This document shows, piece after piece, positions 1-21,417 of a stretch of DNA of 32,138 bases. Source of the DNA: an uncultured Chloroflexales bacterium. GTDB lineage: Bacteria > Chloroflexota > Chloroflexia > Chloroflexales > Chloroflexaceae. The position numbers and the translations under genes were made by a program. The notes beneath the pieces were generated by a model. That model was not told the origin of the DNA, made no database searches, and saw only the letters and a program-made list of their open reading frames with translations. Numbering within the stretch: the first letter of the stretch is position 1; each line of letters starts with the position of its first letter. The stretch covers positions 1 to 32,138 of the forward strand of contig CAKZSI010000075.1 in assembly GCA_937918935.1 (NCBI GenBank), in the 5' to 3' direction.

Positions 1-5248
<5,248 letters not shown>

Positions 5249-5290
5249 AGGGGATCGCTCCTTACGTGCCCCACCTGTCTTCGCGCAAGT

Positions 5291-5318
5291 CCCCGCCCCC
5301 GCACAGGCGGGAGCGGGG
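5291..5318. other. GC-rich hairpin between acyl-CoA dehydrogenase and synthase genes
   Basis: CCCCGCCCCCGC (5291-5302) and GCGGGAGCGGGG (5307-5318) pair over 12 positions with one C-A mismatch and an ACAG loop. No T-run follows on the minus strand, so it is not a classical terminator. It could stabilise, process or attenuate the joint transcript. Confidence 0.5.
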
Positions 5319-5340
5319 GCAGATGAGGGCGGGTGAATGG

Positions 5341-6978
5341 CTACTCGGCCGGGAACGCCTCGATCAGGCGCTGAGCGACGACGTTCATATCCTCGATCTG
5401 GCCGGCCTGGGCGTTGAAGATCGCCGGCAGGTTGATGCTGGCCGCCAGGTTCGGGTCAGTCTGGCCGGCGCTGATGCACCAGCGCAACCCGTCGGCGGCG
5501 ACCTTCATCGCGGCCTCGCGGGCGTGAACGCGGGCCATAGTCTTCAGCGTGTCCTGCGAGAAGGGCACGGCCACGCTGGGCCTGGTAGCGGCACGCTCGC
5601 TGAAAATCGCCGCGGTCTCGGCCCAGGCGATCAGTTCGCCGAGGCGGAAGAGAATATGCTGGTTGCGGGTGAGCCGGTCAAGGCGGGCGCGCTCGAGAAT
5701 GACCGCCAGGGCGCGCATCCCCAGGGCCGCCGTCGCCGCGCCGCTATCCGGGTGCTGGCGGGCGACCTGGTCAAGCTGGGCGGCCCAGTCATTGTAGAAG
5801 GCCCCGCGGGTCTTCAGGTGGGCCTGCCAGCGGTCGCGGGCGATGGTCCACTCCATAATCTCCGAGGTGCCCTCGTAGATGCAGGTGATGCGCACATCGC
5901 GCTTGATCTTCTCGACCATGTACTCCTTGGTGTAGCCGTAGCCGCCGTGGGCCTGGATGGCGTCCTCGGCTGCCTTGTTGCCACTCTCAGTGGCGAAGTA
6001 CTTCGCCACGGCGCCTTCGGTCTGCTGGTCGGGGTCGCCGCCATCAATGCGTTCTGCAACCCACTCGATGTAGGCCCGCGAGGCCTCGAGGCGCACGGCA
6101 TTCGGCACCAGGAGCTTGTGGGTATAGGCCTGCTTGGTGGAGAGCAGCCCGCCGCCCTGCACGCGGGTCTGGCTGTAGCGAATGGCGCGCTCGAGGGCCG
6201 CCCAGCCGGCCCCCAGGCCAAACGAGCCGACCATCAGACGGGTGTAGCCAAACACCGCCTGGGCCTGCGCCAGACCCTGGCCCTCGACCCCGCCAACCAG
6301 GTTTTCGACCGGCACAAACACCTCATCGAGGAACAGGGCCGCGGTGTTCGAGGCGCGAATACCGTGCTTATCCTCCGGCTTGCCGTAGCTGAAGCCCGGC
6401 TGCCCGGCCTCCATAATAAACCAGGAGATGCCGCCGGGGGCGTTAGCCAGAATGGTGTAGAGCTTCGCCACGCCGCCGTTCGAGATCCACTGCTTCCGGC
6501 CGGTGAGCTTGTAGCCGATAATCTTACCGTCCTCTTCAACCGGAACAGCCCTGGTCGTCAGGGTGCCGAGGTCTGAGCCGGCCTGCGGTTCAGTCGCTCC
6601 GTAGGCCACCAGCAGACCCTCGGAAGCGATACGGCCCATCCAGTGGGCCTTCTGCTCTTCCGTCCCCCCCACCACGATCGGGTCGGTACCGAGGAAGGTC
6701 GCCAGCACACCGGTCGCAATACCGAGATCGATGCGAGCCATTTGCTCCGAAACGCGGTAGACATCGTAGGCGCCACCGCCGAGACCGCCATACTCCTCGG
6801 GGATGAAGATGAGATGCAGTCCGAACTTCTCAGGGTCATAGAGGTCACGGAGGACGTCGTGCGGGAACTCGTCGCGCTCGTCGAGCTCGCGCAGGTACTC
6901 GGGCTTGAGCCGCTTGGCCGCGTAGTCGCGAAGGGTCGTAAGCACCATCTCCAGCGTATCGGTGTCCAGGGTCGTCAT
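5341..6978 (-). CDS. acyl-CoA dehydrogenase family protein with C-terminal extension
   Basis: The 545-residue product is a flavoprotein of the acyl-CoA dehydrogenase family, which introduces an alpha-beta double bond into acyl thioesters using FAD. Seen: [11 protein letters not shown] (the family's TEP-GSD motif), [20 protein letters not shown] and [11 protein letters not shown], with Glu369 at the position of the catalytic base of medium-chain enzymes. Ordinary members end near 380-400 residues; this one carries about 150 extra residues, as in long-chain or very-long-chain types. I chose the ATG at 6978 because AGAGG lies 9-10 bases upstream. An in-frame start at 7107 would lie inside the -10 box of the promoter described here and encode an implausible Arg/Cys-rich leader. 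It is the first gene of the probable operon with the KS-AT-KS synthase, so it may act on acyl chains made or consumed there (inference). Confidence 0.93.
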
Positions 6979-7106
6979 CGGCCTGATCCTCTCCACTAGT
7001 GACTTGCCGCCAATCCGTCCGCACGCGCGCAACGAATAGCTATGGAGTGCGGCAACCGCGCTCCTTCGCTGGCAGCAAGTTCTACACACGTTTAGTTCTG
7101 CCTGCA

Positions 7107-7135
7107 ATCATATGCCACGGGCCGCGAAATGTCAG
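7107..7135 (-). promoter_or_regulatory. sigma70-type promoter for the acyl-CoA dehydrogenase / synthase operon
   Basis: On the minus strand CTGACA (7130-7135) is followed after exactly 17 bases by TATGAT (7107-7112). Each box differs from consensus at one position. Transcription would start near 7100, giving a leader of about 120 bases before the ATG at 6978. Confidence 0.6.
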
Positions 7136-7206
7136 GTGAAGGGTCTTTCTTGTGAGAGGAGGTTTGTTCACTATTTAGCAAGGAATTCTTCACCTGATGG
7201 ACGCTC

Positions 7207-7223
7207 GCGCGGCTTCGCCGCGC
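7207..7223. terminator. hairpin downstream of the GT39 gene
   Basis: GCGCGGC (7207-7213), loop TTC, GCCGCGC (7217-7223): a perfect 7-bp stem ten bases past the stop of the minus-strand glycosyltransferase gene. There is no clear T-run, so termination is only possible. Confidence 0.35.
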
Positions 7224-7232
7224 ACCACCGGG

Positions 7233-9530
7233 TCAATCAGGAAGCTCCGGAGGGGGCGCGCGACCCTCCGAACCCTCCCACCGAAAAGAGGCCTGGGGAA
7301 TACCGGTTTCCCCATCCCTGACCGGGGCAGATAGCTGGTACACGATAAAAAGCGGCGCTCCGTCCACGGGCGAGGGCGCCTCCTCGAACGTGCCATAGGG
7401 AAAGGCGAACTGCACCAACCCCAGTTCACCCGCCCGCTCGGGCACAAAGACGAAGGCCGTTGGGTGGTCGTGGGCGGCAAGGGTTGGGCCTGGCGGTTCC
7501 CGCAGCGGATCGTGCACGTCGACCCGTTCGATGTGCGGGGCGAGGTAGGGAAGGGTGCCGAAATCAGCGCCCATCCGCGGCCAGCCGAAGAAGACCAGCC
7601 GGCTATTGGGTGGAAGATGGTCGTTGGCGTAATGCGCCAGTTCGGTGGCCAGCAGGGCGTTGGCGTTGCCATAGACCCGCGTGGGCGTATACTCAACGAA
7701 GTAGTAGCGCACGCTCAACCCTGCCAGGGCCACCGTGGCAATGCCCAGGACGGGCGCCAGACGTGCGGGGCGCGGCGCGCTCAGGGCCTGGGCCAGGCCC
7801 TGAACCAGCAAAGCCAGCCCCAGGGCCACGAAAACGATCGCCGGGATGGCCGTGGTAACCAGACGCTGGCTCGATGGGGGGCTCTCGGTGAGCATCCCGC
7901 CCAGAACGATGGCCCCGCCCCACCAGGCGACGAGGGGGAAGATCCGCCGGTCGAAGAGGCGCGTGAGGGCGAACCCCAACCCCAGGATGAAGAGCGTGCC
8001 GTGGGCCAGATCGAAGAGGGGACGTGGCGACCCATACCAGACCGTGCGGTCCGGGTAGGCGTTATAGGCCAGGGCGGCGCGCCAGAACTGATCGATCAAG
8101 ATCGGCACGGCCCCCTGGTTCCGAATGACCTGCTCGCGCTCCAGCCAGCCGCTCTGAATGATCCCGACCTCATTCAGCCGGGCGTTGTACTCGGCAGGGA
8201 AGCGGAGGGCGTACTGGATCATCGGCGCGGCGCTGAGCAGCAGCGCGCCCGCCAGGATGGCCACGCCCCAACCCTGCTCGCGCCAGAAGCGCCGCCCATC
8301 GCGCAGGGCCAGCACCGCCACCACCACAAGAACCAGGATGCCGACGAAGCGCGCCCCGGCGTAGAAGTACTGGGCGACGCCGATCAGCGCGCCGCAGAGG
8401 GCGTAATCGAAGGGGTTGCGCCGGTCGTAGCCCCGGTACAGACAGAGCAAGGCCAGGGTGGCGAAGAGACCATCGGCAATCTGATTGGAGCCGAGCCGCG
8501 AGAAATGGATGTGGTAGTGATAGCCGGCCAGGAGCGCGGCGCTGATCAGCGCCAGGATGTGGCCGTGCAGCCGGGCAACCAGGGCGTAGGCGCCGATCAC
8601 CGTGGCGACGCCAACGAGCGCCCAGGGCAGGCGCAGGGCCGCGGCATTCTGGCCAAACAGGGCAATGCTCGGGGCGTTGAAGTAGAAGCTCATCGTTGGC
8701 ACACCGAGCCAGCCGGTGCTGAAGGGGTTCCGAATGCCCCCCGCCAGCACGCGCATAGCCTCCAGCCCCTGGGACCCCTCATCGCCGCTCAGGGTAGGCG
8801 GGATGGCGCCAATGTTCCAGGCGCGCAGCACCAGGGCGAGCGCCCCGATCGCCAGAGGTATGAGCAGGGTCGCGGACGCGAAACGGGGGCGCCGCAACCT
8901 TCCGGCAGTAACGGCCGTAGCCCCCAGATAGCAAGCCACCGCCGCGGCCCAGGGGGCGAAGGTCCAGTTGAGATCCTGCTGCGGCGGGGCAGGCCGGGCG
9001 CCGGCCAGGGCCGCGAGGGTCAGCAGCATCAACAGGCCCGCGGCCAGCAACAACCCCACCCGCCACGGGGCCAGGGAGAGGGCGGTTGTGTCGCGGCGAG
9101 GCTCCGCGGGGCCGGCGCCGCGCGCCCACCACAAACGCTGTCTGGCGAAGGCGAGGCTGATGGCCACGGTCGCCAGCACCGCCAGGCCCAGCGCCGTCCA
9201 CGAAAACGCGGCGCGTTGCAGAAAGAGGTACTGGGCCGCCGCAGCCAGGGCCGCGCCGCTTAACGCCAGGGCCGACCCGCCCAGACGCACCCAGGCGCCG
9301 CGTGGTTGGACCGCGTGGCCAGTGAGTGCATCGAGTGGCCGGAAGCCGCTCCCTTTGTGACGCGCCACGCCCGTGTTTGGGGTGGAGCGACGCTCCGCCG
9401 CAAACGCGGGCCTGGCAGCCGGCGGATTGTGTGGCCCGGAAGCAGGGTACATACGCTGGCGCGCGATACTTGTACCTGTCCAGATAATTCCCGGTCGCTC
9501 TGGCCGGAGCATCGGGCCGAGAGATGGCAT
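7233..9530 (-). CDS. GT39/ArnT-like polytopic membrane glycosyltransferase (GT-C fold)
   Basis: About 765 residues, with an N-terminal region of about 85 residues and then many hydrophobic segments. The loop after a long hydrophobic stretch reads SGDEGSQGLEAMRV (Asp250-Glu251), the acidic motif of GT-C enzymes that use polyprenyl-phosphate sugars (PMT_2/ArnT-like). A soluble C-terminal part follows (from VEYTPTRVYGN). The likely role is transfer of a sugar to a lipid or protein on the outer membrane face; the acceptor cannot be told. The start is uncertain: ATG at 9530 is the first in frame after the promoter at 9571-9599, but its ribosome site is weak. ATGs at 9512 and 9452 are alternatives, and a frame open to 9788 would cross the promoter. 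The last 30 or so residues are encoded by repeat-like DNA (hairpins at 7248-7270 and 7295-7313), suggesting the original end was extended. Confidence 0.82.
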   Translation of the reverse strand: MPSLGPMLRPERPGIIWTGTSIARQRMYPASGPHNPPAARPAFAAERRSTPNTGVARHKGSGFRPLDALTGHAVQPRGAWVRLGGSALALSGAALAAAAQYLFLQRAAFSWTALGLAVLATVAISLAFARQRLWWARGAGPAEPRRDTTALSLAPWRVGLLLAAGLLMLLTLAALAGARPAPPQQDLNWTFAPWAAAVACYLGATAVTAGRLRRPRFASATLLIPLAIGALALVLRAWNIGAIPPTLSGDEGSQGLEAMRVLAGGIRNPFSTGWLGVPTMSFYFNAPSIALFGQNAAALRLPWALVGVATVIGAYALVARLHGHILALISAALLAGYHYHIHFSRLGSNQIADGLFATLALLCLYRGYDRRNPFDYALCGALIGVAQYFYAGARFVGILVLVVVAVLALRDGRRFWREQGWGVAILAGALLLSAAPMIQYALRFPAEYNARLNEVGIIQSGWLEREQVIRNQGAVPILIDQFWRAALAYNAYPDRTVWYGSPRPLFDLAHGTLFILGLGFALTRLFDRRIFPLVAWWGGAIVLGGMLTESPPSSQRLVTTAIPAIVFVALGLALLVQGLAQALSAPRPARLAPVLGIATVALAGLSVRYYFVEYTPTRVYGNANALLATELAHYANDHLPPNSRLVFFGWPRMGADFGTLPYLAPHIERVDVHDPLREPPGPTLAAHDHPTAFVFVPERAGELGLVQFAFPYGTFEEAPSPVDGAPLFIVYQLSAPVRDGETGIPQASFRWEGSEGRAPPPELPD
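7248..7270. repeat. GGAGGG-type dispersed hairpin inside the 3' end of the GT39 gene
   Basis: CGGAGGG (7248-7254) and CCCTCCG (7264-7270) form a 7-bp stem with a 9-base loop. A second hairpin, GGGGAA (7295-7300) with TTCCCC (7308-7313), lies just upstream in the gene. Both resemble elements seen between genes elsewhere in the window, but here they are translated. Confidence 0.5.
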
Positions 9531-9570
9531 TTGAACAGGTTCTTCGATTAGTGGCCGATGGATACCTGAC

Positions 9571-9599
9571 AGTATAAAGATCTGCGGGGCGCTCGTCAA
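9571..9599 (-). promoter_or_regulatory. promoter for the GT39 gene
   Basis: On the minus strand TTGACG (9594-9599), a 17-base spacer and TATACT (9571-9576). Both boxes are 5/6 matches. Transcription would begin near 9563, which rules out translation starts above that point. Confidence 0.6.
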
Positions 9600-9622
9600 C
9601 CGTTTTGGCATCTGTGAAGCAA

Positions 9623-9651
9623 TTCCCAAATGCGCCGATATGTGGTATACT
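9623..9651 (+). promoter_or_regulatory. promoter for the pnt operon (extended -10)
   Basis: TTCCCA (9623-9628), 17 bases, then TATACT (9646-9651) preceded by TGG, an extended -10. The -35 is weak (4/6). Transcription would start near 9658, inside the palindrome at 9649-9664. Confidence 0.5.
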
Positions 9652-9664
9652 TGAGATCTCAAGT
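9649..9664. promoter_or_regulatory. perfect 16-bp palindrome, candidate operator
   Basis: ACTTGAGATCTCAAGT is fully self-complementary. It overlaps the last three bases of the pnt -10 box and the predicted start site, a classical place for a repressor dimer. The opposed GT39 promoter lies only about 50-70 bases away, so one regulator could affect both. No candidate regulator gene is in the window. Confidence 0.5.
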
Positions 9665-9769
9665 GCCCAGGACAAGTCCAGGGGATGAAAGGGTCTTGCA
9701 CAGCGCCGTGCGAACTGCTCTGTGGGTTATTGGCGGTGAGCGTTTGTCGCATCGTGCACGGGGGTATCC

Positions 9770-10939
9770 ATGATTGTTGGCGTTCCACAGGAGGTCTTTC
9801 CCGGAGAGCAGCGTGTGGCGCTGGCGCCTGGCGATGTGCCCACGCTCAAGAAGCTGGGGTTGGAGGTGCTGATCGAGAGCGGGGCCGGGCTACGAGCCGG
9901 TTTTCCCGATGAGCAGTACGTCGAACGGGGCGCCAGAATGGCCGCCTCACGCGCCGAGGTGTTCGGCGCCGCCGATGTGCTGTTCCAGGTGCGCGCGGGC
10001 GGCGCGGCGCCATTGCAGGCCGAAGGCGATTTGCGGCTCCTGCGCGCCGGGCAGACCATTCTGGCGTTCCTCGATCCGCTCTGGGAGCCGCGGCAGGTCG
10101 CCGCTCTGGCCGAGCGGGGCGTGAGCGCCCTGGCCATGGAACTGGTGCCGCGCATCAGCCGCGCGCAGAGCATGGACGCGCTCTCGTCCATGGCAACCAT
10201 TGCCGGGTACAAGGCGTCAATCCTGGCGGCCCTGCATCTCCCGCGCATGTTCCCCATGCTAATGACCGCCGCCGGCACCATTAACCCCGCGCGGGTCTTC
10301 GTCATCGGCGCTGGTGTGGCCGGGTTGCAGGCCTGCGCCCACTCGAAGCGCATGGGCGCCCGCGTCGAGGCCTACGATGTGCGCGCGGCGGTAAAGGAGC
10401 AGGTGGAGAGCGTCGGCGCCAGGTTCGTCGAACTGCCTCTGGAGACCGGCGATAGCGAGGACAAGGGCGGCTATGCCAGGGCCCAGGGCGAGGAGTTCTA
10501 CCGGCGCCAGCGGCAGTTGATGAGCGAAGTGGTGGCGCGGAACGACGCCGTGATCAGCACCGCCTCCATTCCCGGCAAACGCGCCCCGGTGTTGATTACC
10601 CGCGACATGGTTGCCGGCATGCAGCCCGGCTCGGTGATTGTTGATCTGGCGGCCGAGCACGGCGGCAATTGTGAGTTGACGCGCCCAAATGAAATCGTGG
10701 TCGAGTACGGCGTGACGATCATTGGCCCGACGAACATTGCCTCCACGGTGCCCAACCACGCCAGCCAGCTCTACAGCCGCAACCTGGTTAACCTGCTCAA
10801 GCTCGCGGTCAAGGATGGCCGACTGGCGCTCGACACCGACGATGAGATTGTGCGCGAGACGCTGGTGGCCCACAATGGCGCCATCACCAACCCGCGCCTC
10901 CGCGAGTTGCTCGCCCAGACCGATACGGTTACGTCGTGA
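9770..10939 (+). CDS. pntAA: proton-translocating NAD(P) transhydrogenase, subunit alpha part 1 (NAD-binding domain I)
   Basis: 389 residues, the usual length for the separate NAD(H)-binding subunit of three-gene transhydrogenases. The N-terminus IVGVPQEVFPGEQRVALAP is typical of the alanine dehydrogenase/PntA family. VIGAGVAGLQACAHSKRMGA is the dinucleotide-binding fold with the acidic residue following in EAYDVR. SIPGKRAPVLI and GSVIVDLAAEHGGNCELTRP are family signatures. The cytoplasmic enzyme half passes hydride from NADH to NADP+ bound by PntB, coupled to proton entry, supplying NADPH for biosynthesis. The start ATG has only a G-rich stretch (GGGGG) upstream. It is the first gene of the pntAA-pntAB-pntB operon, with a 131-base gap containing a hairpin before pntAB. 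Confidence 0.96.
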   Translation: MIVGVPQEVFPGEQRVALAPGDVPTLKKLGLEVLIESGAGLRAGFPDEQYVERGARMAASRAEVFGAADVLFQVRAGGAAPLQAEGDLRLLRAGQTILAFLDPLWEPRQVAALAERGVSALAMELVPRISRAQSMDALSSMATIAGYKASILAALHLPRMFPMLMTAAGTINPARVFVIGAGVAGLQACAHSKRMGARVEAYDVRAAVKEQVESVGARFVELPLETGDSEDKGGYARAQGEEFYRRQRQLMSEVVARNDAVISTASIPGKRAPVLITRDMVAGMQPGSVIVDLAAEHGGNCELTRPNEIVVEYGVTIIGPTNIASTVPNHASQLYSRNLVNLLKLAVKDGRLALDTDDEIVRETLVAHNGAITNPRLRELLAQTDTVTS

Positions 10940-10986
10940 ACCTGTGGAGGCATCGCGCCCATGGACGCTCCACAGCTCTACCCCTC

Positions 10987-11006
10987 CACAACTCTACAGA
11001 GTTGTG
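10987..11006 (+). other. hairpin between pntAA and pntAB
   Basis: CACAACTC (10987-10994), loop TACA, GAGTTGTG (10999-11006): a perfect 8-bp stem without a following T-run. It may act as an mRNA processing or stability element. Similar short motifs (gaacctgtg followed by a GGAG-type stretch) stand at both ends of this gap. Confidence 0.4.
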
Positions 11007-11070
11007 ATCGAACTGAGGGAATGCCGATCTCTACAATGAAGTCCGATCCAGAACCTGTGAGGAGACATCC

Positions 11071-11352
11071 GTGGAACTGCTGGTCGTTTCGCTGACAGTC
11101 TTTGTGCTTGCCATCTTCGTCGGCTTTGAGATCATCACCAAGGTCCCGCCGACGTTGCATACCCCGTTGATGTCCGGCTCGAACGCGATCTCCGGCATTA
11201 CCCTGGTGGGGGCGGTGATTTCGGCGGGAGCCCAGATCTCGCTCTTGACGACGATCCTGGGCTTCCTGGCGGTGGTGTTCGCGACCATTAACGTAGTGGG
11301 CGGCTTTCTGGTGACCGAGCGCATGCTCGCAATGTTCCGGCGGAAGGATTGA
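11071..11352 (+). CDS. pntAB: NAD(P) transhydrogenase, subunit alpha part 2 (small membrane subunit)
   Basis: 93 residues, almost all hydrophobic, starting with GTG behind a clear AGGAG (six bases upstream). It corresponds to the C-terminal membrane helices of long PntA proteins: FVGFEIITKVPPTLHTPLMSG followed by the conserved SGSNAISGI. With PntB it forms the proton-conducting domain II in the inner membrane. Its stop codon lies a few bases before the pntB start, so the two are translationally linked. Split PntA subunits like this are common in several bacterial phyla. Confidence 0.95.
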   Translation: MELLVVSLTVFVLAIFVGFEIITKVPPTLHTPLMSGSNAISGITLVGAVISAGAQISLLTTILGFLAVVFATINVVGGFLVTERMLAMFRRKD

Positions 11353-11357
11353 CGGCG

Positions 11358-12740
11358 ATGCGTGAGAATCTAATCAATCTGGCCTATCTGATTGCCGCGG
11401 TGCTGTTTATTCTTGGCATTAAGGGTATGACCCATCCGCGGACGGCGGTGCGGGGCAATCGCCTCGGAGCGATCGGCATGCTGATCGCCGTGGTGGCCGC
11501 GCTGCTCGATCTGCACGTGGTGCGCTACGAGTGGATCATCGCCGGTGTGGTGCTCGGGGCAGGGATCGGCGCGGTGATGGCCCGGCGCGTGCAGATGACG
11601 GATATGCCCCAGATGGTGGCCCTGCTCAACGGCTTCGGCGGCGTCGCCTCAACCCTGGTCGCCGGCGCGGCGCTGATGGAGGCGCTGGCGCTCGCCACCG
11701 GCGTTCCATTGCAGTTCACCATCGCCACCGCCGCCTCGGGGCTGATCGGCGCAGTGACGTTCTGGGGCAGCCTGGTGGCCTTCGCCAAATTGCAGGGCCT
11801 GACCGGCGATATCCGTATCAAAGGGGCGCAGATGCTCAACGCTGCGCTCCTGGCCCTCACTACCGCCTTTGGCGTCTGGCTGGTGATTGACCCGAGCGCC
11901 ACCTGGGCCTACTGGGCGCTGGTGGTCACGGCGAGCATCCTCGGCCTCTCGCTGGTCTTCCCCATCGGCGGCGCGGATATGCCGGTGGTGATCTCGCTGC
12001 TCAACTCCTACTCGGGTCTGGCCGCGGCGGCAACCGGCTTCGTGCTCAACAATAACGCGCTGATCATCACCGGCTCGCTGGTAGGCGCCTCGGGCATCAT
12101 CCTGACCAATATCATGTGCAAGGCAATGAACCGCTCGCTCACCAACGTGCTCTTCGGCATCTGGGCGCCCTCCGAAGAGACGGCCAGCAGCGATGAGGTC
12201 TACGCCGGCAAGGTCAAGGCCGCTCACGCCGATGAACTGGCCCTGTTGCTGGAGGGGGCGCGGCGGGTGGTCATCGTGCCGGGCTATGGCATGGCCGTCT
12301 CACAGGCCCAGCACGCCGTGCGCGACCTGGTGCTCATGCTCGAGGAGCGCGGGGTGGAGGTTGAGTTCGCCATCCATCCTGTAGCGGGACGCATGCCCGG
12401 CCATATGAACGTGCTGCTGGCCGAGGCCGACATTCCCTACGAGCAGATGAAGGAGATGGACGAGATCAATCCGACCTTCGAGCAGACCGACGTGGTGATT
12501 GTGATCGGCGCGAACGATGTGGTCAACCCCCTGGCCCGCACCAACCCCAGCAGCCCGATTGCCGGCATGCCTATTCTGAATGTAGATAAGGCCCGCAGCG
12601 TGATCGTCATCAAGCGCAGCCTCAGCCCGGGCTTTGCCGGCATCCCCAACCCGCTCTTCGCCGCCGAAAATACGCTGATGCTGTTCGCTGATGCCAAGAA
12701 GGGCGCGCTCGACCTGATGAACGCTCTCAAAGCGGCCTGA
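11358..12740 (+). CDS. pntB: NAD(P) transhydrogenase subunit beta
   Basis: 460 residues. The first about 270 are a run of hydrophobic helices (domain II, proton channel). The C-terminal third is the NADP(H)-binding domain III, with GYGMAVSQAQ (from Gly309), HPVAGRMPGHMNVLLAEA, GANDVVNP and KRSLSPGFAGIPNPLF, all hallmark PntB sequences. I chose ATG 11358, which has GGAAGG about 10 bases upstream; a TTG at 11349 overlapping the pntAB stop is in the same frame but has its ribosome site too close. The gene is followed by the strong terminator at 12838-12875. Confidence 0.96.
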   Translation: MRENLINLAYLIAAVLFILGIKGMTHPRTAVRGNRLGAIGMLIAVVAALLDLHVVRYEWIIAGVVLGAGIGAVMARRVQMTDMPQMVALLNGFGGVASTLVAGAALMEALALATGVPLQFTIATAASGLIGAVTFWGSLVAFAKLQGLTGDIRIKGAQMLNAALLALTTAFGVWLVIDPSATWAYWALVVTASILGLSLVFPIGGADMPVVISLLNSYSGLAAAATGFVLNNNALIITGSLVGASGIILTNIMCKAMNRSLTNVLFGIWAPSEETASSDEVYAGKVKAAHADELALLLEGARRVVIVPGYGMAVSQAQHAVRDLVLMLEERGVEVEFAIHPVAGRMPGHMNVLLAEADIPYEQMKEMDEINPTFEQTDVVIVIGANDVVNPLARTNPSSPIAGMPILNVDKARSVIVIKRSLSPGFAGIPNPLFAAENTLMLFADAKKGALDLMNALKAA

Positions 12741-16861: not shown

Positions 16862-17722
16862 TCACGCCTGACGCGGAACGAAGCGCAGTTCGACGCTGTC
16901 AACCACCGGCTCAAAGCCGATCGCCTGGTAGACGTGGTTCGAGGTGGGATTGTTCAGATCGGCATAAAGAAAGCAGCAGCGCTTTCCGGCATTGAGCTGG
17001 ATCTGGCTGATGGCGGCCACCAGGGCGCTGGCATAGCCTTGCCGTCGATGTTCTGGCGGAGTGTAAACCGCGCTGATGCGCACGCCGTGGGGGGTGGGGC
17101 CGGCGACGCCGGCCATTGATACCGGTGCGTCCACTTCCCAGAGGTACAAATGACGGTCCGGCGAGGTCAGCCAGCGGGTAACGGTGGTCTGGCTATCACC
17201 CGGAGCGGCGCCGGGGTAGACTTCGGCGCGGAAGGCATTGAACCAGCATTCTAGCAATGGGCGGTCATCTTCGGTGGTCAGGCGTATATGGCCCGGCGGG
17301 GGCGCGGGCGAGCGCACGGTGGTAAGTTGATAGATCCGCTGCGGCATACCCTGCTCGACGCACCCACCGCTCCGGGCCGCCCAGTGGCGGCCAAACGGCT
17401 CCGCCACCGAGCGCGGGCCGATCACGCCGGGCAGGGGGTATGCCGAACGGTGCAGTTCTTCCACCAGCGCCTCGATGGCCCCGGTGTGCCGGGTATGCGA
17501 CAGTACCAGCTTGTTGGGGGGCGTTTGCAGGGCCGCGAATACCACGACGCCCCCTTCCTCGACCGTGACCAGGAGCGGCGCTTGCGGTCCGAACGTTTCG
17601 GGGTTGTGGGTCAATTCCGCGCAGAGGCCGAGGATCAGATGGTTGTGCGCCTCGTGGGCCAGAAGCAGGGGCATGGCCCGTTCGACGAAGCTCTGGATGT
17701 CGGTATGCTGGACGATCCGCAT
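16862..17722 (-). CDS. GNAT-family N-acetyltransferase
   Basis: 286 residues. The C-terminal half is a GNAT fold: ISAVYTPPEHRRQGYASALVAAISQ is motif A with the acetyl-CoA pyrophosphate-binding R-R-x-G-Y-A loop, and LYADLNNPTSNHVYQAIGFEPV is motif B. The N-terminal half (to about residue 140) probably is a degenerate second GNAT-like domain, as in the two-domain acetyltransferases resembling FeeM/DUF4081 proteins (family assignment tentative). The substrate is unknown. The start ATG has GGAGG six bases upstream. A minus-strand TGG-TATAAC extended -10 lies at 17756-17764. It is a single gene, separated from the caspase-like gene by a 430-base divergent region. Confidence 0.88.
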   Translation of the reverse strand: MRIVQHTDIQSFVERAMPLLLAHEAHNHLILGLCAELTHNPETFGPQAPLLVTVEEGGVVVFAALQTPPNKLVLSHTRHTGAIEALVEELHRSAYPLPGVIGPRSVAEPFGRHWAARSGGCVEQGMPQRIYQLTTVRSPAPPPGHIRLTTEDDRPLLECWFNAFRAEVYPGAAPGDSQTTVTRWLTSPDRHLYLWEVDAPVSMAGVAGPTPHGVRISAVYTPPEHRRQGYASALVAAISQIQLNAGKRCCFLYADLNNPTSNHVYQAIGFEPVVDSVELRFVPRQA

Positions 17723-18022: not shown

Positions 18023-18152
18023 AAAAAAAGAGGATCGGCTCAACGCGCCCGCGTCGTGGCCACCTTGCTCATGCGTGTCGTATTGCCTGCCGGGAACGCC
18101 CGCGCCGGTCGTCGACCGTTCCGCGCAGGCGCGTAGCAATAAGGAGTTGCCG

Positions 18153-19367
18153 ATGAGAGACGATCTCGCCGCCACCCTGCGGAGTCTCCGCGATCTACAC
18201 GCGATGGGCCTGCTTGACGATGCGGAGTATGCCGACAAACTGGAGCGTTTGCGCGAACGCTTCGGCCATACCATCGTAAACGCGCTGCTGCGCGTCGTGG
18301 TGGCCTCTCCGGAGAGCCGCTCCGGCTCTCCCGCCGATGCGGACGGCCCGATCACCGGCACGGGGCTGACAGCACCGGGCGCGGCGACCCGCGCCGAGCC
18401 CCTTCCGGCCAGCCTGAGCGCCGACGGCATGCACTTCAGCTATGGTCACGCCCTGATTGTCGGCGTCTCCGAGTATGCCCATCCCCATCTCCGCCTGCCT
18501 GGCGGCACGACCGCCAGCGATGCCCGGTCCCTGGCCAGTCTGCTCCGTGACCCGCACCTCGCGGCCTACCCCGAGCAGCAGGTGCGCCTGCTGGTGGACG
18601 GCAAGGCGACCCGCAACTTCGTGCTTGACGCGCTGGAAGAACTTGCCCACCTGGTTGATGGTGGAACAGCGCTGATCTGCTTCTCCGGGCGCGGAGCCTC
18701 TACCGAGGCGGGCTACGCCTTACTACCCTTTGATGCCGATCCCGCTCGCCTGGTCGAGACCGCGTTGACCGCCGAGGTGTTCCAGCGGCGTGTGGCGAAG
18801 GTCCGCGAGCGCGCGTGTCGGCTGGTGGTGCTGCTCAATTGCTGCCAGGCCGCAGAAGAGGACGACCCTGACGGTCCTGTGGCGGCGTTATCGGGGGCGG
18901 CGCCGCCTCCAGAGTTTTACCGGCCCCTGTCGGTTAGCAGCGATCAGGTGGTCATCTCCTCGGCGCGGCCAGGGCAGCGCGCCGGTAGTCGCTCGGCGGT
19001 CAATCCGCGCCACACGATCTTCGGCGAACACCTGCTCCTGGCCCTGGGCGGGCAGGCGCCGGGCGCCGGGCCAGCCATCGGTGTGTTCGATCTGTTCGCC
19101 TACCTGCGGGTGGCCGTGCCTGCCGATGGACGCTCGTTGCAGCACCACGAGGCCCTGCTCCAGGAGCCGCTGTTCTATACTGCCGCCCTGGGCGAGAACC
19201 TGCCCCTGGCCCTGCGCCCGGCGGGAGGGGTCGCCGGGGGCGATTCCGCGGCGGTGCAACGCCTGATTGAGTTGGAGTTGCGCCTGGAGGCGGCCGATGG
19301 CGAAGCCGTATACGGGCTACTCGGCGAACGTGATGAGATCCTGGCCGCCCTGGCGGCATCGTTGTGA
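18153..19367 (+). CDS. caspase-fold (peptidase C14-like) protein with degenerate active site and SHOCT-like N-terminus
   Basis: 404 residues. The N-terminus (about 3-40: LAATLRSLRDLHAMGLLDDAEYADKLERL in two pieces) matches the pattern of SHOCT domains. A Pro/Ala/Ser linker follows, then a caspase-like domain: YGHALIVGVSEYAHPHL, TASDARSLASLLRDP, ALICFSGRGAST and LVVLLNCCQAAEEDD. In active metacaspases the fourth-strand motif is FSGHG and the Cys motif is DxCHSG or DCCHSG. Here the catalytic His is Arg180, the Asp before the Cys pair is Asn229 and the following His is Gln232; Cys231 remains. It is therefore predicted to be a non-proteolytic pseudoenzyme acting as scaffold or sensor (inference). 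The C-terminal about 40 residues (LIELELRLEAADGEAVYGLLG) are acidic and helical. ATG 18153 has AAGGAG six bases upstream. It stands alone, convergent with the GT-C operon. Confidence 0.85.
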   Translation: MRDDLAATLRSLRDLHAMGLLDDAEYADKLERLRERFGHTIVNALLRVVVASPESRSGSPADADGPITGTGLTAPGAATRAEPLPASLSADGMHFSYGHALIVGVSEYAHPHLRLPGGTTASDARSLASLLRDPHLAAYPEQQVRLLVDGKATRNFVLDALEELAHLVDGGTALICFSGRGASTEAGYALLPFDADPARLVETALTAEVFQRRVAKVRERACRLVVLLNCCQAAEEDDPDGPVAALSGAAPPPEFYRPLSVSSDQVVISSARPGQRAGSRSAVNPRHTIFGEHLLLALGGQAPGAGPAIGVFDLFAYLRVAVPADGRSLQHHEALLQEPLFYTAALGENLPLALRPAGGVAGGDSAAVQRLIELELRLEAADGEAVYGLLGERDEILAALAASL

Positions 19368-19422: not shown

Positions 19423-21375
19423 TCAGGCGGATCTGACGATCCAGGCAATCACCAGGATCAGGTATCCTGCCACGGCGGGCCAGGGCGGCATACCCAGACC
19501 AAACTCGATTGGACGGGTGGCCTGGATCAGGCCAAGGGCCAGCAGGGCCAGCCCTGGCCACGGCCCTCGCCCCGGGGCGGCGAGGGCCAGCCATGCCAGG
19601 GGCAGGGCCAGGAACACCAGGTGGTGGTACCAGATCAGGCTGGAGCTGATGGTCAGGATGGCTACGCCGCAGGCCAGGATGGCCCCGTCATTCGCCTCGC
19701 GGCGCCGCCAGCAGATGGCGGCCCAACTGCCCAGCAGCCCCAGGCTGAAGGCCCGCCCCAGCCAGGCTGCCGCCTGCTCTGCCGCCGAGCCGGGGGCCGT
19801 CAATCCGGTCAGCAGGGCCGCCATGGCCTGGTTGTAGGGGTTGCGGGGCACGCCCCCCAGCAGATCGGGGAGCAATTGCGCGAAGGCTATCCACGGTGCC
19901 GGCCCGTAGAGGGCGAGGGCCGGCAGGCTCAGCCCGACCGCCCCTATGGCGACCCGCGCCAGTCGGCGCCAGTCGCCACGGGCCAGCGGCCAGAGCAGCA
20001 GCGCCACCGGCGTGAGTTTGATCAGTATAACCGCGGCAAGCGCCACGTCGCCCGCCCACGCCAGGCGCCGTATGGAGTGACCCAGCACGAAGAGCGCCAA
20101 CCCGAACAGCATCAGGCTGTTGATCTGGCCGATCGCCACGTTCTCCAAAAAGGGGGCAAAGCCCAGCCCCAGACCAAGCACGGCAAGCAGACCGGCGCGC
20201 CCCACCCCTTCCTGCGCCGCGTAGATCCCCAGCAGGGCCAGCGTGTAGAGGGCGACCGAACCAACCAGCCAGAGACCGTGGGTAAGCCAGGGCTCTACGG
20301 CGGCGAGGGCAGCAAAGAGGGGAACCGTCGGCGGCGGATAGACGAAGGAGACGCCGATCACGTTGAGTTCGGGCGGATCGTAGGGGATCTGCCCGGCCAG
20401 GGCCAGGCGTCCGGCCCGCAGGTAGATCTCCAGGTCCAGGGCCAGGCCGGGATGCACGTTCCGGTGGTTCCACAGCCCCGCCGCCAGGTACAGGCCCATG
20501 CCCCCGATCACCACACCCGCGCAGGCCATGGCCCGCGAAGCGCCGCCACGCTTCCCACCGGCCCGGACGCGCGCGCCAATGTCACCTGCCGCCAGTGCCC
20601 GCCCATCCCCGGCGGCTCGCCAGCGCCCTATCGCCCCCAGCGCGAGCGGCCATCCCCCGGCAACCAGAGCCGCAACCAGGGCGGCGATGGCGCTGAGGGG
20701 CGCGAAGGTCCACGCGGCCCAGCGCCCACCCAGGTGCCAGGCGAGCAGCGATGCCATCACCAGAGCGACGGTTGTTGCCGCGCCCCGAGGGGGCAGGATG
20801 GCGCGTATGGCAAGGTGGAGGGCCACGGTGCTGAGCAGCGCCGCCGCGACGAGGGCCCGTGGCGCCGCGCCCCCGCCCCACACCCCGACCTCGCCCAGCA
20901 CGACGCCAACTTCTCGCGTTTCGCCGGGCGGCACGAACGGCGGCGCGGACAGTTCCAGGGCGATGCGCTCGCCGGCTTGCGCCGGGACAAGTATCTGGTA
21001 CCGTCGAAGATCCGTTCCGAGGCGCCACCGGGTGTTGATCGGCCCGCTCAGCGCCGCCTCGACGCTCCGCCGCGCCCCGGCCGAGAGGTCCAGACGCAGG
21101 AGCAACGTCCCGCCCGGATTGGGCAGGTCGAGGCGGGAGCGGCCGGTCGTCCAGCGGTAGGCAGCGCCCCCGTCGGCGCGCCGTTCGAGGGCGTGCAGGC
21201 CGGTGGCCGGCGGCGGGGCTTCGGGCGTGTAGCGCGCCACCCGCGGGCCGCTGGCAAGGAGCCACACCATCAGGGCCATTCCGGCCAGGAGAAGAACGAT
21301 GATGCCAGGCTCACCACCAGAGGGAATGAGGGCCAGGGCTGGCAGGCGGGGGGGTGGTTTACCGCGATCGGCCAT
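19423..21375 (-). CDS. GT87/DUF2029-like polytopic membrane glycosyltransferase with N-terminal lumenal-type domain
   Basis: 650 residues. The C-terminal about 330 residues carry the DUF2029/GT87 pattern: DLEIYLRAGRLALAGQIPYDP, then SFVYPPPTVPLFAAL, GQINSLMLFGLALF and KLTPVALLLWPLARG, between many hydrophobic helices. Such proteins use polyprenol-phosphate mannose or similar donors. The N-terminus has one helix (about 27-45), then a soluble beta-rich stretch (about 50-165), then a hydrophobic block. ATG 21375 is seven bases after GGAGG; an in-frame GTG two codons earlier is less well placed. It follows the 721-residue membrane protein gene by 42 bases, so the two are co-transcribed. The acceptor is unknown; a role in surface glycan assembly is inference. 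Confidence 0.82.
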   Translation of the reverse strand: MADRGKPPPRLPALALIPSGGEPGIIVLLLAGMALMVWLLASGPRVARYTPEAPPPATGLHALERRADGGAAYRWTTGRSRLDLPNPGGTLLLRLDLSAGARRSVEAALSGPINTRWRLGTDLRRYQILVPAQAGERIALELSAPPFVPPGETREVGVVLGEVGVWGGGAAPRALVAAALLSTVALHLAIRAILPPRGAATTVALVMASLLAWHLGGRWAAWTFAPLSAIAALVAALVAGGWPLALGAIGRWRAAGDGRALAAGDIGARVRAGGKRGGASRAMACAGVVIGGMGLYLAAGLWNHRNVHPGLALDLEIYLRAGRLALAGQIPYDPPELNVIGVSFVYPPPTVPLFAALAAVEPWLTHGLWLVGSVALYTLALLGIYAAQEGVGRAGLLAVLGLGLGFAPFLENVAIGQINSLMLFGLALFVLGHSIRRLAWAGDVALAAVILIKLTPVALLLWPLARGDWRRLARVAIGAVGLSLPALALYGPAPWIAFAQLLPDLLGGVPRNPYNQAMAALLTGLTAPGSAAEQAAAWLGRAFSLGLLGSWAAICWRRREANDGAILACGVAILTISSSLIWYHHLVFLALPLAWLALAAPGRGPWPGLALLALGLIQATRPIEFGLGMPPWPAVAGYLILVIAWIVRSA

Positions 21376-21417
21376 CTCCACACCTCCACATACTCTGCCA
21401 GCCCGGGCCGCCCATAG

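What the first reader, a model, noticed from the sequence alone, without database searches (positions are those of the whole stretch)
18153..19367. Caspase-fold protein with the catalytic histidine replaced by arginine
Seen: FSGRG (Arg180) where active C14 peptidases have FSGHG, and NCCQ (Asn229-Gln232) instead of DCCH around Cys231. Three conserved positions have changed while the fold-defining segments stay, and a SHOCT-like segment is fused in front. This suggests a selected pseudo-protease rather than a decaying gene. Inactive caspase homologues as signalling scaffolds are known in eukaryotes; the SHOCT fusion in bacteria is, as far as I know, not well described.
Basis: partly seen in the sequence, partly recalled or inferred. 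Interest (0 to 1): 0.6.

Follow-up and report, generated by a model that had tools for sequence, protein, structure and literature searches.

The report
Dead caspase wearing a sensor's tag
A gene kept in three related Chloroflexales-type bacteria joins a caspase-like protease that has lost its catalytic histidine to the front-end domain of immune-type sensor proteins, which suggests a non-cutting regulator or decoy rather than a decaying gene.

Summary
In detail: window 18153-19367 (+) encodes a 404-aa caspase-fold protein with Arg180 at the catalytic His and Cys231 kept. Arg is fixed (codon CGC) in the 3 readable orthologs of the genus; the 29 other rows of my tree have His. The gene is under purifying selection (dN/dS 0.12-0.18) and syntenic, so an error or decay is unlikely. 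The closest relatives (52-58% identical) are intact His/Cys orthocaspases; 7 of their 10 contigs also carry a STAND-NTPase/FGE sensor or a reverse-transcriptase piece. One such locus is a proven diversity-generating retroelement. The N-terminal SHOCT-like domain is the one found on those sensors: in 41 family genomes its strong matches are the three Arg-caspases and 17 others, of which 14 lie in sensor sequence and none in a caspase. The protein thus combines a sensor's adaptor with a dead effector, and lacks a short motif that some sensors share with active caspases. Best reading: a cFLIP-like non-proteolytic regulator derived from a diversified immune-type system. Main weakness: no SHOCT-bearing sensor was found in the genomes that carry it.

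The parts
18141..18146 (+). Shine-Dalgarno-like AAGGAG, 6 bases before the ATG
   Evidence: read directly from the sequence
18153..19367 (+). Arg-caspase gene, 404 aa: SHOCT-like N-terminal domain plus caspase-fold domain with H-to-R at the catalytic His
   Evidence: orthologs; dN/dS
18153..18308 (+). N-terminal SHOCT-like adaptor, aa 1-52; predicted helices 2-17, 23-37, 39-51; homologous to N-termini of STAND-FGE sensors
   Evidence: dN/dS 0.02-0.04 by NG86
18309..18413 (+). low-confidence linker, aa 53-87; no match to the motif shared by some sensors and active caspases
   Evidence: pLDDT under 50 for residues 54-95; no match
18444..18989 (+). Peptidase_C14 (caspase p20-type) match, aa 98-279
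18690..18692 (+). Arg180 codon CGC at the catalytic-His position
18837..18848 (+). Asn229-Cys230-Cys231-Gln232; Cys231 = catalytic Cys position, kept
16862..17722 (-). GNAT acetyltransferase, upstream neighbour, also in G002 (not part of the mechanism)
19423..21381 (-). GT87 glycosyltransferase, downstream neighbour, also in G002, G003 and G004 (not part of the mechanism)

Best explanation
It is a maintained, probably non-proteolytic caspase-fold regulator. SHOWN by sequence: (1) the caspase part belongs to a clade of orthocaspases whose intact members mostly share their contig with STAND-NTPase/FGE sensor genes or a reverse-transcriptase piece; in one of these loci (G015:C319) the sensors are proven targets of a diversity-generating retroelement (DGR); (2) the N-terminal domain is one that starts such sensors; (3) the catalytic His is Arg in the three readable orthologs, with selection kept on the whole protein. 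INFERRED: (4) with Arg in place of His the Cys cannot be activated in the usual way, so classical peptide hydrolysis is lost; (5) the N-terminal domain associates with itself or with like domains, as adaptor (EAD-type) domains are thought to do; (6) the dead caspase domain binds what the active caspase binds (substrate or sensor platform) and so blocks or tunes a death effector, much as cFLIP (death-effector domains plus dead caspase) works. A plausible origin is a deletion joining the 5' end of a sensor gene to a [17 protein letters not shown] gene of the same operon, followed by H-to-R and fixation at a stable chromosomal site.
For: Arg in 3 of 3 readable orthologs versus His in 29 of 29 other tree rows; the Arg rows form one branch at 100/100 inside an 11-row clade at 100/100. 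dN/dS is 0.12-0.18 over the gene and 0.02-0.04 in the N-domain; over aa 88-404 it is 0.12-0.19, no higher than among active relatives (0.17-0.24). N-domain matches in 41 family genomes: the 3 Arg-caspases and 17 other strong ones; 11 of the 17 are in sensor frames of 974-1068 aa, 3 in shortened or broken frames with sensor homology, 2 cut by contig ends, 1 a short ORF; none is a caspase. Active relatives share a contig with a sensor (6) or a reverse-transcriptase piece (1) in 7 of 10 loci. DGR in G015: 13 of 13 and 15 of 15 repeat mismatches at template A. Caspase fold recovered by AF2 and Foldseek (best hit MALT1, E 6.4e-11, TM 0.41).
Against: No SHOCT-bearing sensor was found where the gene is: G000, G002 and G004 each have the N-domain once, on the Arg-caspase itself (E up to 0.01), so a homotypic partner is not seen. 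The Pfam SHOCT domain failed an oligomerisation test in its own paper (PMC3581485, passages read). Changes at columns invariant in active relatives are not clearly concentrated at the active site (2 of 9 full changes, p 0.35; 7 of 21 with partial ones, p 0.0075). Two new His (110, 135) arose in the same clade. Template/variable repeats were found in only 2 of 5 loci examined, and the second (G002:C3) has a sensor without SHOCT beside another caspase type. One active caspase locus, G026:C956, shows no sensor in 5 kb upstream. No biochemical data exist.
Confidence: 0.45

Rival explanations
1. Non-proteolytic peptide-binding or scaffold protein: the dead caspase domain binds a ligand and the N-domain assembles it, with no role in restraining an active caspase.
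For: Same constraint and architecture evidence. No SHOCT-sensor found in the 5 genus genomes. Kaur 2020 proposes peptide binding for inactive caspases (PMC7159879 section 12).
Against: Origin inside a sensor/effector clade makes a link to that pathway the more economical idea; the HAGG motif after the Cys, kept in 8 of 8 active relatives, is loosening.
Confidence: 0.28
2. Trans-acting antidote: a domesticated chromosomal copy that protects the cell against incoming or sibling STAND-caspase modules carrying the SHOCT domain.
For: Same locus in G000 and G002 on both sides and in G004 on the GT87 side, no such module beside it in the window, and the sensor tag under the strongest constraint.
Against: No evidence that SHOCT modules enter this genus; none seen in its 5 genomes (G003 is 84% complete).
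Confidence: 0.12
3. Still a protease: Cys231 is activated by a relocated base (His110 in the loop after strand 1, or conserved His287/His293) or assisted by Arg180.
For: His110 and His135 are present in 3 of 3 Arg-caspases and 0 of 8 active relatives; Cys231 is kept in all three.
Against: His287/293 are equally present in active relatives, so they are not compensatory. The Glu after GHG (7 of 8 active relatives) is lost in 3 of 3 and the HAGG motif is loosened. No caspase-clan peptidase known to me works this way (recalled).
Confidence: 0.09
4. Decaying remnant of a former module.
For: Partner sensor not found; linker evolves fast (dN/dS 0.20-0.36).
Against: dN/dS 0.12-0.18 with intact frames in three genomes at synonymous divergence of 0.50-0.74.
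Confidence: 0.05
5. Sequencing error or strain variant at Arg180.
For: His to Arg is a one-base change.
Against: Same codon CGC in three separate genomes.
Confidence: 0.01

Closest known systems
Bacterial pseudo-orthocaspases (PMC6426788; SyOC of Synechocystis, PMC7889975)
   Same: Caspase p20 fold with a substituted His-Cys dyad; maintained clades (passages read). SyOC deletion raises oxidative-stress tolerance (abstract read).
   Different: Dyads named in the passages read are mainly YS, YN, YA, FS, QC, HA and 18 types in a cyanobacterial survey, with RG but not RC (PMC8283722, passages). Three pseudo-variants were reported in Chloroflexi. The word SHOCT does not occur in PMC6426788.
DGR-diversified STAND/EAD/FGE systems (Dore 2024, PMC10907252) and EAD-effector systems (Kaur 2020 PMC7159879, Kaur 2021 PMC8195603)
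   Same: FGE-type variable sensor with STAND NTPase; short domain shared by sensor and a peptidase protein, proposed to recruit by homotypic contact (passages read)
   Different: Here the shared domain is SHOCT-like, the peptidase is dead and stands away from the system. None of the three main texts contains the word SHOCT.
Inactive caspases in vWA/MoxR systems (Kaur 2020)
   Same: About 70% of effector-position caspases there are stated to be inactive and proposed as dominant-negative or peptide-binding (section 12 read)
   Different: No vWA or MoxR domain among the 10 neighbour ORFs scanned here
cFLIP(L), human pseudo-caspase (PMC7586951; listing and start of abstract)
   Same: Dead caspase paralog used as regulator; adaptor domains in front (recalled)
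   Different: Unrelated adaptor; regulation not tested here
SHOCT domain PF09851 (PMC3581485, passages)
   Same: Helical hairpin core aligns (aa 8-33)
   Different: Ours is at the N-terminus, about 52 aa with a third predicted helix; the paper's main text names no caspase

Membership tests
Pseudo-orthocaspase | caspase p20 (Peptidase_C14) fold | tested here: met
   34.1 bits against cut-off 21.4; Foldseek hits MALT1, caspases and metacaspases
Pseudo-orthocaspase | catalytic His-Cys dyad substituted | tested here: met
   Arg180/Cys231 in 3 of 3 readable orthologs
Pseudo-orthocaspase | no p10 domain | tested here: inconclusive
   Pfam match ends at profile 175 of 233; two active relatives reach 229-230; parts of the C-terminal half of the model are low confidence
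Pseudo-orthocaspase | no protease activity | not testable with these tools
   needs an enzyme assay
SHOCT (PF09851) | score above Pfam gathering cut-off | tested here: inconclusive
   whole protein 25 bits, isolated 54 aa 28.0 bits, cut-off 27
SHOCT (PF09851) | C-terminal location | tested here: not met
   aa 8-33 of 404; also N-terminal on sensors
EAD-type adaptor | same short domain on sensor and on effector-type proteins | tested here: met
   N-domain on STAND-FGE sensors and on the Arg-caspases, in different genomes
EAD-type adaptor | sensor and effector sharing it in one genome | tested here: not met
   one match only in G000, G002 and G004 at E up to 0.01
DGR-STAND conflict system | reverse transcriptase, template repeat and variable target near the gene | tested here: not met
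   no such gene among the 10 neighbours scanned and no sensor or RT match in the window beyond the N-domain itself; met in the relative G015:C319
cFLIP-like regulator | binds and restrains an active caspase or its platform | not testable with these tools
   needs co-expression or pull-down

The most novel reading that the evidence does not exclude
A bacterial counterpart of cFLIP made by gene fusion: the adaptor of retroelement-diversified STAND sensors joined to the inactivated caspase of the same module and fixed on the chromosome as a brake or antidote against caspase-mediated cell suicide.
Probability: 0.25. Interest if true: 0.8.

Novelty: new variant of a known kind. Interest (0 to 1): 0.5.

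Why it matters
Inactive caspases that regulate active ones are known from animals. A bacterial case built from the two ends of a sensor/effector operon would show that such brakes arise wherever STAND-caspase death modules exist, and it names a small testable protein. It also gives the N-terminal 'SHOCT' hairpin of these systems a candidate role as a sensor adaptor.

Tried and rejected
Rejected: sequencing error or strain variant (orthologs); decay (dN/dS); 'NCCQ' as an inactivating signature (Asn ancestral, Gln not fixed). No support found: phage origin (one viral-contig scan: 110 pattern matches, none a relative); a defence island in the window (10 neighbour ORFs scanned, 8 with housekeeping-type or membrane-enzyme families, 2 without a family).

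Led nowhere: phmmer of the protein against PDB sequences gave nothing at E up to 1. PADLOC gives a generic caspase match to the window protein and no match at E up to 0.01 to the two SHOCT sensors scanned. The test for active-site concentration of substitutions is equivocal. The repeat test gave DGR-like pairs in 2 of 5 loci; L034 and L048 gave none and L117 one repeat without the A pattern. No coordinates come with the model, so Arg180-Cys231-His110 distances could not be measured. The fold model is moderate (mean pLDDT 65.7). The reverse transcriptase of G000:C15 was not classified. YN00 failed for some short or distant pairs.

Dropped rows: one search listed 78 places and gave 30 loci. L010 (His site outside the contig) and L030 (wrong frame in my script) are in no tree count. 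A later look found GHG in L030, L054, L056, L059 and L060 and could not read L057, L058 and L061 with its pattern. Unfetched places were not checked for His or Arg. In one search the region before the caspase of G026:C956 was not found by my pattern and was left out.

Full report
OBSERVATION. The ORF at 18153-19367 (+) reads as 404 aa from an ATG preceded by AAGGAG. Pfam finds Peptidase_C14 at aa 98-279 (34.1 bits, cut-off 21.4) and SHOCT at aa 8-33 (25 bits, cut-off 27); the isolated 54 residues score 28.0. A profile of the subfamily matches Metacaspase-4 (6w8s; E 0.00024) and aligns FaGhG with YSGHG and nCCh with DSCH, so Arg180 lies at the catalytic His and Cys231 at the catalytic Cys.

ORTHOLOGS. 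In 61 genomes searched (43 with a match), the two closest proteins are 87% (G004) and 84% (G002) identical over the full length and read FAGRG; the codon is CGC in all three. Of 32 rows in the tree, 3 have Arg and 29 have His. The Arg rows form one branch (100/100) inside an 11-row clade (100/100) of otherwise FAGHG/NCCH proteins. Asn of NCC is thus ancestral; Gln232 is His in G002. The genus has 5 held genomes. G003 keeps only the last 46 codons, at a contig edge, so its His/Arg site is unseen. G001 has the neighbouring GT87 gene without this gene beside it and no close match elsewhere. The record matching G004's contig is titled uncultured Chloroflexi; other relatives are titled Chloroflexi, Oscillochloris, Ca. 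Viridilinea and Ca. Chloroploca, plus one titled Gracilibacteria. Oscillochloris and Viridilinea are Chloroflexales.

SELECTION. Pairwise dN/dS over the gene is 0.12-0.18. By part it is 0.02-0.04 in the N-domain, 0.20-0.36 in the linker and 0.09-0.19 in the C14 part. Over aa 88-404 it is 0.12-0.19 among Arg-caspases and 0.17-0.24 among active relatives. DNA synteny covers both sides in G002, the GT87 side in G004 (whose contig ends upstream) and the GT87 side in G003. Of 112 columns invariant in 8 active relatives, 9 are changed in all three Arg proteins (His180 among them) and 21 in at least one. Enrichment near the active site is absent for the 9 (p 0.35) and modest for the 21 (p 0.0075).

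THE N-TERMINAL DOMAIN. It is 47-56% identical to the N-termini of proteins of about 970-1064 aa. Of four sensor proteins scanned, one passes the Pfam cut-offs for both NACHT and FGE-sulfatase, two pass for FGE-sulfatase with NACHT below cut-off, and a shortened one has NACHT just below cut-off. In 41 genomes of the family a profile of the domain gives 25 matches at E 0.01 or better: the 3 Arg-caspases, 17 stronger others and 5 weak ones in short frames. Of the 17, 11 are in frames of 974-1068 aa that match the sensor, 3 are in shortened or broken frames with sensor homology, 2 are cut by contig ends and 1 is an 82-aa ORF. None is a caspase. In 158 genomes of the class (E up to 1e-4) no further SHOCT-caspase appeared; the extra hits were two P-loop sensor-type frames and generic, mostly C-terminal SHOCTs. 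AF2 predicts three helices, 2-17, 23-37 and 39-51 (pLDDT blocks 74-87).

THE PARENT SYSTEM. Ten contigs carry the active clade (eight genes with a readable active site, two fragments). A STAND-FGE sensor or part of one lies within about 4 kb in six (G033:C19, G015:C319, G026:C771, G026:C312, G022:C2, G020:C452), and a reverse-transcriptase piece in a seventh (G001:C2). None was seen in G026:C956 (5 kb upstream read) or in the cut contigs G014:C388 and G025:C531. In G015:C319 (Ca. Viridilinea mediisalina) two sensors, a reverse transcriptase and the caspase lie on one strand. A template repeat at 3091-3171 differs from the ends of both sensor genes only at template A (13 of 13 and 15 of 15), the hallmark of a DGR. 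G002:C3 shows 14 of 18, for a sensor without SHOCT beside a caspase of another clade. The other three loci tested gave no such pair.

A SECOND SHARED MOTIF. Between the N-domain and NACHT of several sensors, and next to the catalytic domain of some active caspases, lies a stretch of about 25 residues, often Gly-rich. Of 84 sensor-caspase pairs compared, 17 align at or below p 0.01 by 300 shuffles, uncorrected. They include the cognate pairs in G033 (score 70) and G015 (score 50, a different version) and the tail of the other caspase of G000. The caspases of G025, G022 and G026:C312 and the sensor of G002:C3 gave no match, nor did the three Arg-caspases. The placement resembles bacterial amyloid signalling (BASS) motifs reviewed in PMC7889193 (passages read); membership was not tested.

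MECHANISM. The gene pairs a sensor's N-domain with a dead effector. I infer a regulator or decoy that docks through the N-domain and presents a non-cutting caspase fold. The main difficulty is that no SHOCT-bearing sensor was found in G000, G002 and G004, so self-association or a divergent partner must be allowed. G000 has one other C14 gene over the Pfam cut-off, with YAGHG/NACH (C38). The fusion origin is suggested by gene order in G033:C19, where the sensor is followed by the caspase; it is not proven.

KNOWN WORK. Pseudo-orthocaspases are common: 858 of 9,994 bacterial orthocaspases, three sequences in Chloroflexi (PMC6426788, passages). A cyanobacterial survey lists 18 substituted dyads, with RG but not RC (PMC8283722, passages). 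About 70% of effector-position caspases in vWA systems are stated to be inactive (PMC7159879, section 12). Library searches joining SHOCT with caspase, NACHT or metacaspase showed no paper on such a fusion: 'SHOCT domain' with 'caspase' returned 0 papers, and the 15 listed have no SHOCT. Papers outside that library were not searched. The finding is a new variant of a known kind.

Noticed in passing
L113 (G015:C319) 502-11690; L112 (G002:C3) 2957-7822: DGR with STAND-FGE targets near a caspase gene: template-repeat A positions account for 13/13, 15/15 and 14/18 mismatches.
   Followed up: partly
L035 sensor about aa 60-85 and the caspase downstream; L103 caspase tail: Motif of about 25 aa (QxxxGxAxVGxAxAGDxHG) shared by some sensors and active caspases, possibly a RHIM/BASS-like signalling motif.
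   Followed up: partly
L094 and L095 N-terminal region; L035 3838-4473: Three active-clade caspases start with a glycine-containing hydrophobic stretch (AARxVLLxIAPLIAGGAL-like), possibly a membrane or pore segment.
   Followed up: no
L100 (JAAUTF010000266.1): Record titled Candidatus Gracilibacteria but the genome groups with the window's family in the genome search (G020); possibly mislabelled or mis-binned.
   Followed up: no
window aa 110, 135, 176 (18480-18482, 18555-18557, 18678-18680): His110, His135 and Cys176 are fixed in the 3 Arg-caspases and absent from the 8 active relatives.
   Followed up: partly
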